44,564 nucleotides of DNA from a virus. A program made the position numbers and the translations under genes. The notes beneath the pieces are model-generated. The model had not been told where the DNA came from. It saw only the letters and a list, made by a program, of their open reading frames with translations, and did no database searches. The DNA lies in the IMG/VR virus record IMGVR_UViG_3300030090_004789, positions 1 to 44,564 of that record, one strand, 5' to 3'. Shown here piece after piece: positions 22,328 to 25,915 of the stretch (position 1 is the first letter of the stretch; each line of letters starts with the position of its first letter).

Positions 22328-22351
22328 TATATTATATTTATGGAGGCAAAT

Positions 22352-23215
22352 ATGAATTGTTACGATCTGTTAAAGACAAATAACCATGTAGTGAAAGAGT
22401 CACACAATAAGAAATTAAATAGTAAGCATAGTAAAAACAAGGTTAATGCTACTTTTGCTGATAAAAAGACTTGCCCGACTACTTGTATTCTACATGAAGA
22501 TAATGACGGTGGTTGTTATAATCCCAACGGTTATCGTACCAGGTTGATGAGGAATAGGTTAACTAATGGGGAAACTATCAACCATAAAACTACTAAAACT
22601 GGAGTAGACTTCACACAATATATCAAAGACATTAGAAGTTTACCCGATAATGAATTATTAAGGATTCATGTAGACGGCGACCTTCCAAACGTCGGCGACG
22701 GTCACACCCTAGACGCTGAAAAGTCACTGCTACTAGCTAGCGCAACCAAAAACAAGAAAGCCTATTTATATACTCACTATCCGGTTGAATTAGCAGACTT
22801 TTATAATGATAGTTCGTTAGGTAAAACCGTAGCCGATAGAAAAATTAAAGTTAAAAACAACCGTAGCAAGTACCAGGCAATTATCAAGCATAACCTGGAA
22901 GTATTAACTGCTATGAGTTTAACCGATTCGCTAACCGTCAATCTATCGGCTAACAATTTGGATCATGCGATACGATTAAGAAAAAAGTTTTCTTTACCAG
23001 TTGCAACCGTTGCCCATTCAAAGAATTTCAAAGGTAAACAAGTTAAAAATAATGTAACCTTTATTCAATGTCCAGCAACTATGAAAGATAGTAAAATAGG
23101 TTGTAATAATTGTGGCGGATCTAGGGGCGCATTATGCACTAGAAAAGATAGAAATTATGTTGTTACGTTTCCAGCTCATGGATCGGGTAAAAAATCAATA
23201 GATGCTAATCAATAA
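22352..23215 (+). CDS. Cys-rich phage protein (Gp88-like pattern)
   Basis: 287 residues from the ATG at 22352; the in-frame ATG at 22340 is part of the TTTATGGAGG leader and its use would waste the GGAGG site. Cys motifs: CPTTC and GGCYNPNG near the start, and CPATMKDSKIGCNNCGGSRGALC near the C-terminus, the latter suitable for zinc or an Fe-S cluster. The middle has LRIHVDGDLPNVGDG and a barrel-like alternation (YLYTHYPVELADF, LTVNLSANNLDHAIRLRKKFSLPVATV). This order matches a group of phage proteins of unknown function related in layout to mycobacteriophage Gp88. The last block VTFPAHGSGKKSID is also typical. Biochemical role is not known. Confidence 0.6.
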   Translation: MNCYDLLKTNNHVVKESHNKKLNSKHSKNKVNATFADKKTCPTTCILHEDNDGGCYNPNGYRTRLMRNRLTNGETINHKTTKTGVDFTQYIKDIRSLPDNELLRIHVDGDLPNVGDGHTLDAEKSLLLASATKNKKAYLYTHYPVELADFYNDSSLGKTVADRKIKVKNNRSKYQAIIKHNLEVLTAMSLTDSLTVNLSANNLDHAIRLRKKFSLPVATVAHSKNFKGKQVKNNVTFIQCPATMKDSKIGCNNCGGSRGALCTRKDRNYVVTFPAHGSGKKSIDANQ

Positions 23216-23230
23216 ACCTATCTGAAGATT

Positions 23231-23284
23231 CAAGTTAGTTACTTGATGAAACCCAGGATTGTTCCTGGGTAATAGGAAACTAGA
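23231..23284 (+). ncRNA. Hammerhead-like structured leader lacking stem II
   Basis: Between two plus-strand genes, TTGATGA (23243-23249) runs directly into a perfect hairpin: ACCCAGGA (23251-23258), loop TTGT, TCCTGGGT (23263-23270). This is followed by A and a strand that can pair back (AACT with AGTT, with an internal loop). The order matches the hammerhead at 24799-24851 if that element lost stem II and part of its GAAA. As it stands the catalytic core is incomplete, so this is a structured leader and at most a ribozyme relic. Confidence 0.3.
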
Positions 23285-23294
23285 GGAGTATAAA

Positions 23295-23552
23295 ATGTCA
23301 GCCAAAATAGAAATACCGTTACGATTAGATGAATTAACTTTTGAACAACAATTAAAGATAATTTGGATAGTTAATTCAATTGCGTCCCATCGACATGATG
23401 AAAAAATTGATACTTTTATAAATTCTAAGCTAGAAGAATTTAGACTTAACCTTGATGAAAATATGCATGATTTTGTATTTAAAAAAGATACTGCTAAAAA
23501 GATTACTAATCCCCGTAGTGATTACAGCTTTCCTTATGGAATAAAAAATTAA
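23295..23552 (+). CDS. Small hypothetical protein
   Basis: 85 residues from the ATG at 23295, chosen because GAGGAG lies at 23283-23288; a longer frame starting at 23259 would run through the leader hairpin. The protein is helical and mixed in charge (AKIEIPLRLDELTFEQQLKIIW, then DEKIDTFINSKLEEFRLNLDE). No motif recognised. An intrinsic terminator follows 24 bases after the stop, so it ends the second rightward unit. Confidence 0.6.
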   Translation: MSAKIEIPLRLDELTFEQQLKIIWIVNSIASHRHDEKIDTFINSKLEEFRLNLDENMHDFVFKKDTAKKITNPRSDYSFPYGIKN

Positions 23553-23576: not shown

Positions 23577-23606
23577 TATCCCAGGTTAAATCCTGGGATA
23601 TTTTTT
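23577..23606 (+). terminator. Intrinsic terminator
   Basis: TATCCCAGG (23577-23585) pairs perfectly with CCTGGGATA (23592-23600) around a 6-base loop, followed by six T's. It closes the unit containing the Cys-rich protein and the 85-residue protein. Confidence 0.9.
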
Positions 23607-23624
23607 GCTATTTTTTGCTCAAAA

Positions 23625-23716
23625 TCGACAAACTAAGCAAATAATCGACGAACTAGCGACCAACTAAACAACGGTCGACGAACTAGGCGACGAGCCAAGT
23701 AATCGACGTTCTGAGC
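23625..23716. repeat. Array 1 of TCGACGAACTAAG-like repeats
   Basis: Units start at about 23625 (TCGACAAACTAAG), 23645 (TCGACGAACTAG), 23656 (GCGACCAACTAA), 23675 (TCGACGAACTAGG), 23687 (GCGACGAGCCAAG) and 23703 (TCGACGTTCTGAG). All point the same way. The spacing is irregular, 11-20 bases. The array lies between a terminator and a promoter, in 241 bases without a gene. A closely matching second array occurs at 25211. Best read as binding sites for a phage regulator or a replication initiator (iterons). Confidence 0.6.
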
Positions 23717-23764: not shown

Positions 23765-23793
23765 AGAAGAACAATATATTTATGGAGGTAAAT

Positions 23794-24798
23794 ATGAAAT
23801 TCACCAAAAAAGATAGAATAGAAGCTGAGTTTATTATTGAAGGTAATGATGAAACTTACAAAGGTTTTCATTACGACCAATACTGGAACGGCTGGGCATG
23901 TCCCTATTTTACTAAGGAAGTTCGTGATAAATGGATTGCCGACGAAAAAAAGATTTTTCTTGATAAACCAGATGCTACTTTTAGAAAAGAGGACATGGAA
24001 TTTATAGAAGGGTACGAAGGAATAGAACCAGACGAAGAAGGGATTTATTCCTTTGGTTATTCTTTGTGTTGGAGAATAGCAGACGATAAATATAAAAAGT
24101 CCATTCTCTCAGATTTGCTACACGATGGATGGACTACCGCAGGTAATTTAATACCAAAGTGGATAGCAAAATTGGCAACCGAAAACAAGAATGACCTAGT
24201 AAATAAAAAAGTTACGTTTTTATCACCATTAAATTTAATGATAGATAGGACTGAGCTTAACGTTGAAAATTTATCTGGTGCTATATCTAGCATAGAATAC
24301 CAAAACGACGACCTTCCTCTTATATGGATAAAACTTGATAAAAAATATCCCATTTTAGATGAATGGAAGAACTGCATTGTATTAGAACCCTATGGTAATG
24401 ACGATGATGAAGGTAAAGTTTCATCGGCAATAGTAGATATTTTAACTCAATCCGAAACGATAACTACACTATGGGACATGAAATTAAAAGAGGGCGATAG
24501 AGTAAAATTCATAGATGACGTTGTCGCCTATTTTGACCGTTGGACTCCCCTAAAACTCAAAGGACTAAAGGGGACTGTTACTATCGTAGATGATGCTACT
24601 ATAGAAGATGGAAAAAGAATGGAAAGTCGAGGACGAATGCAAGATTTACTATTATGGATCAAATTAGATAAATACAACGAAATTTTGGACGATTGGAATA
24701 ACGAGGTTTCTTTGAGCTGTGCAGATGGCGATCACTTTGAACCACTGATAAAAGACGTTTGGGAAAATAACCAGAAGATTCTTAAAATCATAAGCTAG
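23794..24798 (+). CDS. Hypothetical protein with duplicated domain
   Basis: 334 residues from the ATG at 23794, preferred over the ATG at 23782 because GGAGG lies between them. It contains two related segments: DLVNKKVTFLSPLNLMIDRTELNVENLSGAISS...LIWIKLDKKYPILDEWKN and EGDRVKFIDDV...LKLKGLKGTVTIVD...LLLWIKLDKYNEILDDWNNEV. The shared core is LWIKLDK-x-x-x-ILD-x-WN, a small beta-barrel-like unit (KOW/SH3-like, by appearance). N-terminal residues (FHYDQYWNGWACPYFTKEV) are Trp/Tyr-rich. Function unknown. Its stop codon abuts the hammerhead element. Confidence 0.65.
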   Translation: MKFTKKDRIEAEFIIEGNDETYKGFHYDQYWNGWACPYFTKEVRDKWIADEKKIFLDKPDATFRKEDMEFIEGYEGIEPDEEGIYSFGYSLCWRIADDKYKKSILSDLLHDGWTTAGNLIPKWIAKLATENKNDLVNKKVTFLSPLNLMIDRTELNVENLSGAISSIEYQNDDLPLIWIKLDKKYPILDEWKNCIVLEPYGNDDDEGKVSSAIVDILTQSETITTLWDMKLKEGDRVKFIDDVVAYFDRWTPLKLKGLKGTVTIVDDATIEDGKRMESRGRMQDLLLWIKLDKYNEILDDWNNEVSLSCADGDHFEPLIKDVWENNQKILKIIS

Positions 24799-24851
24799 TT
24801 TCACCTGATGAGACCAGAAGGTCGAAACCCTACTGCGGTAGGGTAGTGGAA
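24799..24851 (+). ncRNA. Hammerhead ribozyme, type I
   Basis: All conserved parts are present in order. Stem I 5' strand TTTCAC (24799-24804); core CTGATGA (24805-24811); stem II GACC-AGAA-GGTC (24812-24823); core GAAA (24824-24827); stem III CCCTAC-TGCG-GTAGGG (24828-24843); TA (24844-24845), where U pairs with the last A of GAAA and A is the base before the cut; then stem I 3' strand GTGGAA (24846-24851). Stem I forms six pairs including one G-U. The expected cleavage is after 24845. It sits between a stop codon ending at 24798 and the AGGGG ribosome site of the gene at 24871, so self-cleavage would separate the two cistrons and leave a short 5'-hydroxyl leader. Confidence 0.88.
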
Positions 24852-24870
24852 TACATAAGGGGATACTAAA

Positions 24871-25134
24871 ATGAATAGCGACCAACGATGGGAGATAGCC
24901 GACTCACTGAATTTAAAAGGTGAAATACTAATAACTGATAGCTACTATGACGCTAGCACTGATGAAGTGACAGTAGTAATATATCTAGCATATGAAGGAC
25001 AGTACGCAGGAGAGAAGGCGGTGGACTTGATGGACAGCGATGATAGAATTTTTGAGATAGATGTTATAGAAGATCATGACGATCATGGTAAAAGAATAAA
25101 TACTGCTTATAAAATCTTAGTTAAAGTTGTATAA
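24871..25134 (+). CDS. Small acidic hypothetical protein
   Basis: 87 residues, acidic (many Asp and Glu; DSDDRIFEIDVIEDHDDHG), with a beta-alpha pattern (GEILITDSYYDASTDEVTVVIYLAYEG). AGGGG at 24858-24862 is the ribosome site. It is the only gene between the ribozyme and the next terminator, so its message would begin at the ribozyme cut. Such acidic early proteins can mimic DNA or bind host enzymes; that is a guess. No family recognised. Confidence 0.6.
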   Translation: MNSDQRWEIADSLNLKGEILITDSYYDASTDEVTVVIYLAYEGQYAGEKAVDLMDSDDRIFEIDVIEDHDDHGKRINTAYKILVKVV

Positions 25135-25150
25135 ATAATTAGTTTCTACC

Positions 25151-25178
25151 AACCCCTAGTGAAAACTAGGGGTTTTTT
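25151..25178 (+). terminator. Intrinsic terminator
   Basis: AACCCCTAGT (25151-25160) pairs perfectly with ACTAGGGGTT (25165-25174) around a GAAA tetraloop, followed by T's. It ends the ribozyme-led unit. Confidence 0.92.
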
Positions 25179-25210
25179 ATTACCCTATTCCAGGAAGCTG
25201 CCATATATAA

Positions 25211-25247
25211 TCGACAGACTAAGCACAATCGACGTGCGACGAACTAC
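25211..25247. repeat. Array 2 of TCGACGAACTAAG-like repeats
   Basis: Units TCGACAGACTAAGCA (25211), TCGACGT (25229) and GCGACGAACTA (25236) repeat the sequence of the array at 23625; the first unit differs by one base over 15. It again lies just after a terminator and before an AT-rich promoter-like stretch in a 180-base gap, so the two arrays probably bind the same protein. Confidence 0.55.
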
Positions 25248-25358: not shown

Positions 25359-25661
25359 GTGACGACAACATCAATTAGTGGCAGTGAATTTGGGAAGGCA
25401 GGTAATTACATTTATTGGGAAGATGTGACAGACGAAGAACTGGATGCCATGCAAAAAGATTATTGGGAACTTCTCACCAAAAAGTTCGAAGAACTGTGCA
25501 GGGAGAGGGGATCTAGTGCATGGCTAGAACTTGACTTGTCAGCAGTCTACCATGACGTAGACGATAGAATCTTCATAGACTTTAGTGAAGTTCTGGCAGA
25601 GGCTAGAGAATATGCCTTCGACGAAGCAGTAAGTAAAAGTGAGTCAGGTGACTACAAATAA
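25359..25661 (+). CDS. Small acidic hypothetical protein
   Basis: 100 residues with a GTG start at 25359 behind AGGGGG. Acidic and helical: EDVTDEELDAMQKDYWELLTKKFEELCRERG, then a beta segment WLELDLSAVYHDVDDRIFIDFSEV and a helix EAREYAFDEAVSKSE. Looks like a compact alpha/beta domain. It is the first gene after repeat array 2 and begins a run of small genes leading to the methyltransferase. No family recognised. Confidence 0.6.
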   Translation: MTTTSISGSEFGKAGNYIYWEDVTDEELDAMQKDYWELLTKKFEELCRERGSSAWLELDLSAVYHDVDDRIFIDFSEVLAEAREYAFDEAVSKSESGDYK

Positions 25662-25670
25662 AAATAAATA

Positions 25671-25725
25671 ACAGAAGGGCAAGGGCTGTAACGACTAAAG
25701 TCAAATATGCCCTTGCCTACTCTGT
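25671..25725 (+). other. Two-stem structured intergenic element
   Basis: ACAGA (25671-25675) pairs with TCTGT (25721-25725). Inside, GGCAAGGGC (25678-25686) pairs perfectly with GCCCTTGCC (25709-25717). The 22-base loop can form a small GAC-TAAA-GTC hairpin. No T-run follows, so it is not a standard terminator; the next gene's ribosome site (AGGGGG) comes right after it. It may control translation or RNA stability. Confidence 0.45.
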
Positions 25726-25738
25726 TTAGGGGGAAATA

Positions 25739-25915
25739 ATGAAGAAAAGAAAATTTTATGCAACACGTACAGAGACAAGGGTAGTTACAGTTTACGTTGA
25801 AGCATCCAACAGAGAGGAAGCTGAAGAGTTGCTAGCACAAGATTACGATTCTCATCACGAGATAAAAACCAAACATGACACTTGGGACTACGACCTGGAA
25901 GGTGATAATGAGTAA
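25739..25915 (+). CDS. Small hypothetical protein (58 aa)
   Basis: This short gene runs from ATG at 25739-25741 to TAA at 25913-25915 behind AGGGGG. It begins with a basic strand (KKRKFYATRTETRVVTVYVEA), continues with a helix (SNREEAEELLAQDY) and ends acidic. The strand-helix order suits small beta-grasp-like early proteins of phages. It overlaps the next gene by 8 bases (ATGAGTAA), which supports coding. Confidence 0.6.
   Translation: MKKRKFYATRTETRVVTVYVEASNREEAEELLAQDYDSHHEIKTKHDTWDYDLEGDNE

What the first reader, a model, noticed from the sequence alone, without database searches (positions are those of the whole stretch)
24799..24851. Complete type I hammerhead ribozyme between two phage genes
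Every core base (CUGAUGA, GAAA, UA) and three stems of 6, 4 and 6 pairs are present, starting at the first base after a stop codon and ending 6 bases before a ribosome site. Cleavage after 24845 would process a polycistronic early message. The placement suggests gene regulation rather than a retroelement or satellite.
Basis: seen in the sequence. Interest (0 to 1): 0.85.

Follow-up and report, generated by a model that had tools for sequence, protein, structure and literature searches.

The report
Phage hammerhead ribozymes between paired genes

Summary
Window 24799-24851 (+) is a complete type I hammerhead: stems of 6, 4 and 6 pairs, every core base, predicted cut 24845|24846. A covariance model built without this sequence finds it at 45.9 bits, E=3e-12. 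Rfam does not call it, but Rfam also misses most phage relatives. The motif recurs in over 100 viral loci, with compensatory changes at all six stem I positions, which the search pattern did not constrain. Each lies in a two-gene unit: gene, stop codon, hammerhead, short leader with ribosome site, small gene, terminator. The cuts fall 47 and 56 nt after the stops and 25 and 23 nt before the ATGs. In relatives the cut lies a median 47 nt (type I) or 38 nt (type III) after the upstream stop and rarely within 20 nt of it. Best explanation: cistron separation into independently translatable mRNAs. It is a new member of a known kind (phage hammerheads, published by 2011). Cleavage itself and 'early' transcription are untested.

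The parts
24799..24851 (+). Type I hammerhead ribozyme (copy B), predicted cut 24845|24846
   Evidence: core, stems and fold; leave-one-out model 45.9 bits, E 3.3e-12; covariation in relatives
24799..24804 (+). Stem I 5' strand TTTCAC, pairs with 24846-24851 GTGGAA (G24798-T24852 adds a seventh pair)
24805..24811 (+). Catalytic core CTGATGA
24812..24823 (+). Stem II GACC-AGAA-GGTC
24824..24827 (+). Core GAAA (last A pairs with T24844)
24828..24843 (+). Stem III CCCTAC-TGCG-GTAGGG
24844..24845 (+). U16.1 and H17 (A); predicted cleavage after 24845
   Evidence: established hammerhead chemistry
24846..24870 (+). 25-nt leader left on the downstream mRNA, with ribosome site AAGGGG 24857-24862; no predicted structure
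23782..24798 (+). Upstream gene, 338 aa, unknown function (weak N-terminal match to phrog_9945)
24871..25134 (+). Downstream gene, 87 aa, no known family
25151..25174 (+). Intrinsic terminator closing the unit
23217..23276 (+). Second type I hammerhead (copy A): stem I CCTAT/ATAGG, core CTGAAGA, stem II with U·U at 10.1-11.1, GAAA, stem III CCCAGGA/TCCTGGG; predicted cut 23271|23272
   Evidence: models R1 and R2, fold z -3.9, shuffles
22340..23215 (+). Gene upstream of copy A, DUF7227 (PF23872)
23295..23552 (+). Small gene downstream of copy A, 85 aa
23577..23600 (+). Intrinsic terminator closing the copy A unit

Best explanation
Window 24799-24851 is a natural type I hammerhead ribozyme that separates two cistrons of a phage message. 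A transcript of the plus-strand unit folds the ribozyme in the gap between the two genes (sequence and fold shown). It then cuts itself after A24845 (inferred from the intact core). The upstream mRNA would end in the hairpin-rich ribozyme with a 2',3'-cyclic phosphate, 47 nt past its stop codon. The downstream mRNA would start with a 5'-hydroxyl and a 25-nt open leader carrying the ribosome site, and run about 335 nt to the terminator. Both halves stay translatable, because the cut leaves room for termination upstream and initiation downstream, so the two genes can be translated and decay independently (inferred). A second, weaker hammerhead serves the preceding two-gene unit in the same way.
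For: Intact core, stems and fold; leave-one-out model E 3e-12; shuffles. Covariation in relatives: 98.7% of pair cells paired, all six stem I pairs with changes on both sides, score 0.716 against 0.151 in shuffles and at most 0.103 when slid. Relatives lie between genes: 1 of 119 inside an ORF against 46% of shifted positions; upstream stop at the ribozyme's 5' edge in 49% against 3.8%; this together with an ATG 15-50 nt after the cut in 36% against 0.8%. Stop-to-cut spacing is narrow for type I (median 47) and type III (median 38), with 3% and 8% under 20 nt against 32-36% in controls after collapsing similar neighbourhoods; the window has 47 and 56. Two units of the window share one layout with terminators. 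The leader left after cleavage has no predicted structure. Published precedent: hammerhead arrays flank genes in prophages, three arrays cleave in vitro and the A. tumefaciens one in E. coli (PMC3088659).
Against: No activity data. H17 is A (GUA), a minority cleavage site. The stem I end carries G-U instead of the U·U or A·A mismatch that goes with particular loop II sequences in relatives, so the contact that speeds cleavage may be weaker. Neither gene has a known function, so the benefit of separation is unknown. Short phage intergenic gaps by themselves favour tight packing, which could produce part of the type I spacing. No relative of this phage covering the locus was found, so conservation within its own lineage is untested.
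Confidence: 0.62

Rival explanations
1. Translation-gated switch. The ribozyme is real, but its main job is to sense translation of the upstream gene: a ribosome at the stop codon covers stem I and blocks cleavage, so the cut (and the fate of the two messages) depends on upstream translation.
For: Stop codon abuts or lies within stem I in many type I relatives and exactly abuts it in the window; the ribosome footprint reaches past the stop (general knowledge).
Against: Type III forms sit 20-40 nt beyond the stop, outside the footprint, in otherwise the same gene gaps; compact genomes alone could place the stop at the edge.
Confidence: 0.15
2. 3'-end maker. The ribozyme acts mainly as a terminator substitute that gives the upstream mRNA a hairpin-protected end, and the downstream effect is incidental.
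For: Type I topology leaves the whole folded ribozyme on the upstream product; no terminator lies between the two genes.
Against: Type III relatives leave the ribozyme on the downstream product in the same kind of gap; the next gene and its ribosome site follow closely in most relatives.
Confidence: 0.1
3. Inactive or nearly inactive relic of an ancestral hammerhead that is no longer used.
For: GUA site, minority stem I end, and the neighbouring copy A with a U·U next to the core.
Against: All core bases and three perfect stems are kept in an otherwise fast-diverging phage; 12 of 157 detections in viral loci also use GUA.
Confidence: 0.1
4. Chance resemblance without ribozyme ancestry or function.
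For: No Rfam match at gathering threshold.
Against: Leave-one-out E 3e-12, shuffles, covariation and placement of relatives.
Confidence: 0.01

Closest known systems
Type I hammerhead ribozymes of bacteria and prophages (Perreault et al. 2011, PMC3088659; reviewed in PMC6155905)
   Same: Same core, topology and place near phage genes; multiple copies around short gene blocks; [quoted passage not shown]
   Different: The flanking genes here have no detected relatives; one of the two copies has a core-adjacent U·U mismatch. The stop-to-cut regularity measured here is not mentioned in that paper's main text ('stop codon' does not occur there).
HHphage of haloviruses HF1 and HF2 (PMC3088659)
   Same: Virus hammerhead just upstream of a start codon (13 nt), with a reported in vivo 5' end near the cleavage site.
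   Different: A structural variant in an archaeal virus before a helicase gene; here the core is canonical and lies between two genes of unknown function.
Rfam RF02275 Hammerhead_HH9 and RF00163 Hammerhead_1
   Same: HH9 is the best Rfam match, aligned across the whole element (24.6 bits).
   Different: Far below the HH9 gathering score of 52; pairs of the outer HH9 helix are not formed; RF00163 is not reported.
Type I hammerhead in Rhizobium phages RHEph01 and vB_RleA_TRX32-1 (Paadamvirus)
   Same: Cultured phages with an unannotated type I hammerhead (40.0 and 35.4 bits).
   Different: Different gene context (near a MarR-type regulator and an integrase in RHEph01), longer stem III, unrelated phage lineage.

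Membership tests
Hammerhead ribozyme | Core C3 U4 G5 A6 N7 G8 A9, G12 A13 A14, A15.1-U16.1, H17 | tested here: met
   CUGAUGA 24805-24811, GAAA 24824-24827, U24844, A24845
Hammerhead ribozyme | Three helices around the core, with the pairs next to the core formed | tested here: met
   6, 4 and 6 pairs; MFE fold identical. In copy A the pair 10.1-11.1 is U·U, so copy A meets this only in part
Hammerhead ribozyme | Type I topology: stem I open, stems II and III closed by loops | tested here: met
Hammerhead ribozyme | Statistical match to a hammerhead covariance model | tested here: met
   Own leave-one-out model E 3.3e-12; Rfam gathering thresholds not reached, best Rfam match a hammerhead family
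Hammerhead ribozyme | Stem I to loop II tertiary contact | tested here: inconclusive
   Relatives show U·U with loops NNNA and A·A with loops UNNU; the window has G-U with AGAA, a minority combination
Hammerhead ribozyme | Self-cleavage 3' of H17 giving 5'-OH and 2',3'-cyclic phosphate | not testable with these tools
   needs in vitro transcription and 5'-end mapping
Phage/prophage gene-flanking hammerheads (Perreault et al. 2011) | Lies between phage genes on the coding strand, often several per locus | tested here: met
   Two copies in this virus record, each between a stop and a start; terminase, portal and major head protein genes present
Retroelement- or satellite-associated hammerhead | Tandem or dispersed copies of a repeat unit carrying the motif | tested here: not met
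   The two copies share only core and structure; no direct-repeat family listed joins them

The most novel reading that the evidence does not exclude
Phage hammerheads of different topology obey one layout rule: the cut is placed about 30-55 nt after the upstream stop codon and rarely nearer than 20 nt, because both halves must remain usable mRNAs. Type I ribozymes achieve this by starting at the stop codon, type III by starting 20-40 nt beyond it. Hammerheads would then be a standard cistron separator in viral genomes, largely invisible to Rfam, and type I forms could in addition be gated by the ribosome sitting on the stop codon.
Probability: 0.45. Interest if true: 0.7.

Novelty: new member of a known kind. 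Interest (0 to 1): 0.52.

Why it matters
What hammerheads do in phages has been an open question since they were found there. This window is an unusually clean case: two copies in two neighbouring two-gene units, with terminators that define the expected product sizes. The survey gives a measurable rule (stop-to-cut spacing shared by two topologies) that turns the general idea of RNA processing into a testable one. It also indicates that standard Rfam annotation misses most such elements in viral contigs.

Tried and rejected
Rfam at gathering threshold found nothing in the window; taken as low sensitivity, because in five phage loci only one of many model- or criteria-supported hammerheads was called. 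Relatives of the flanking genes (338 aa, 87 aa, DUF7227) were not found in viral contigs, nor of the 338-aa protein in phage records, so synteny of the ribozyme could not be tested. Terminase found two near-identical contigs (L148, L149; 99%), but by position neither reaches the ribozymes. No gene family dominates next to the relatives: flanking genes include RNA polymerase, ligase, endolysin and anti-restriction protein, so a link to one gene function was rejected. The MFE of a longer stretch around copy A (23218-23300) gave a competing fold while the tighter stretch gives the hammerhead, so copy A is held with less confidence. Weak matches of models R1 and R2 elsewhere in the window (8-15 bits) were judged chance. 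One alignment (A2) misplaced long stem III sequences and was not used for a model. Literature searches for mechanism gave no experimental test of phage hammerhead function beyond the 2011 paper.

Full report
What is there. Between the stop codon TAG (24796-24798) of a 338-aa gene and the ATG (24871) of an 87-aa gene lies a complete type I hammerhead: stem I TTTCAC/GTGGAA, CTGATGA, stem II GACC-AGAA-GGTC, GAAA, stem III CCCTAC-TGCG-GTAGGG, then T-A, cut predicted at 24845|24846. Its minimum-energy RNA fold is exactly this structure (-21.6 kcal/mol, z -3.05). Rfam reports nothing at gathering threshold; its best match is Hammerhead_HH9 at 24.6 bits against a threshold of 52.

Is it more than chance. 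A pattern that fixed the core, the stem II closing pair and the first three pairs of stem III was run over the viral contigs and returned 35 stretches. Stem I was not part of the pattern, yet all but one of the listed sites had at least five continuous stem I pairs. In an alignment of 26 sequences all six stem I pairs show changes on both sides; 98.7% of pair cells are paired; the covariation score is 0.716 against 0.151 for shuffles and at most 0.103 for slid partners. A model built from 22 other sequences scores the window site 45.9 bits, E 3.3e-12. A strict finder on 400 dinucleotide shuffles of the window gave 3 loose hits, none of this quality. The same pattern in 257 Gb of bacterial and archaeal genome contigs gave 3 stretches, so the element looks mainly viral, although the sizes of the two collections were not normalised.

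A second hammerhead. The model also found 23204-23289 (20.1 bits, E 0.0017; 16.8 bits, E 0.0083 with the model built without the window). Read by hand: stem I CCUAU/AUAGG, core CUGAAGA (position 7 is free in hammerheads), stem II UCAAGU/ACUUGA behind a U·U mismatch, GAAA, stem III CCCAGGA/UCCUGGG, U-A, cut 23271|23272. Its own fold is the hammerhead (z -3.9), though a longer stretch has a competing fold. A mismatch next to the core is a defect for which Perreault et al. rejected candidates (PMC3088659), so this copy may be slow or decaying. It lies between the DUF7227 gene (22340-23215) and a small gene starting at 23295.

Two units with one layout. In both units the order is longer gene, stop, hammerhead, 23-25 nt leader with ribosome site, small gene, intrinsic terminator (23577-23600 and 25151-25174). 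The cuts lie 56 and 47 nt after the stops. The two copies share no sequence beyond the motif, so they are not copies of a mobile repeat. The island is on the plus strand between minus-strand blocks, one with head, portal and terminase genes and one with replication genes. The record is a 44,564-base virus record of IMG/VR. Its terminase is about 25% identical to podovirus terminases, and its methyltransferase gene resembles Lacticaseibacillus and Paenibacillus phage genes; the host is uncertain.

What the relatives say about function. In the loci fetched there are 157 detections of type I hammerheads, 119 of them unique. One of 119 lies inside an ORF of at least 100 aa on its strand, against 46% of shifted positions. 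An upstream ORF ends within -8 to +20 nt of the core in 49% against 3.8%, and this together with an ATG 15-50 nt after the cut in 36% against 0.8%. Many loci hold two or more. Some 50 type III hammerheads came with the scan; in them the ribozyme mostly starts 20-40 nt after the stop. Measured to the cut, the two topologies converge: medians of 47 nt (type I) and 38 nt (type III) after the stop. After collapsing similar neighbourhoods 3% and 8% are under 20 nt, against 32% and 36% in shifted controls. In type I the ribozyme's own length enforces part of this; in type III it does not. Flanking gene families vary widely. Caveats: ORFs were called by simple rules, and the sample was chosen by sequence patterns.

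Mechanism. Shown: motif, fold, covariation, placement, terminator-like sites. Inferred: cleavage, product ends, function. The best reading is cistron separation: the cut leaves a stop with trailing sequence upstream and an open leader with ribosome site downstream (no predicted structure). A hairpin-rich 3' end and a 5'-hydroxyl would change decay of the two products (general knowledge, not tested). Ribosome gating of the type I form is possible because the stop abuts stem I; the type III placement argues that it is not the common function.

Tertiary contact. In relatives with a four-pair stem II and a four-base loop, the mismatch at the end of stem I and loop II go together: U·U with loops ending in A in 31 of 32 (the other ends in G), A·A with loops of form UNNU in 13 of 13 (the sequences are related, so this is not a test of independent events). 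This fits the known stem I to loop II contact (PMC3088659). The window's copy has G-U with AGAA, a minority combination, and a GUA site; both could make it slower than its relatives.

Comparison with the known. Phage and prophage hammerheads, gene-flanking arrays and the transcript-processing idea were published in 2011. That paper's main text does not mention stop codons, and the searches made here found no report of the spacing rule; only open-licence papers were searched. The finding is a new member of a known kind with a useful general observation attached.

Noticed in passing
window 23217-23276: Second type I hammerhead with intact core and a U·U mismatch next to the core, between the DUF7227 gene and a small gene.
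   Followed up: yes
window 25670-25726: Very stable long hairpin (-27.8 kcal/mol, z -5.1) between genes 25359-25661 and 25739-25915, without an Rfam match; possibly another processing or regulatory RNA element of the same plus-strand island.
   Followed up: partly
window 23621-23700 and 25207-25246: Repeats of the form TAATCGACGAACTA just after the terminators of the two hammerhead units and before the next gene; possible promoter or protein-binding sites.
   Followed up: no
L017, L018, L020, L066, L092, L102, L127, L128: Viral loci with three or more type I hammerheads, several under 1.5 kb apart around single genes; L102 and L128 also carry type III forms.
   Followed up: partly
L132, L133, L136, L138, L146 and others: Type III hammerheads with a recurrent stem I loop (UGUGUG or UGAGUG) just upstream of start codons in viral contigs.
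   Followed up: partly
L150:2486-2578 and L151:2486-2578: Unannotated type I hammerhead in cultured Rhizobium phages RHEph01 and TRX32-1, usable as a laboratory model.
   Followed up: partly
relatives listed: Two tertiary-contact classes of phage type I hammerheads: stem I end U·U with loop II ending in A, or A·A with loop II UNNU.
   Followed up: partly
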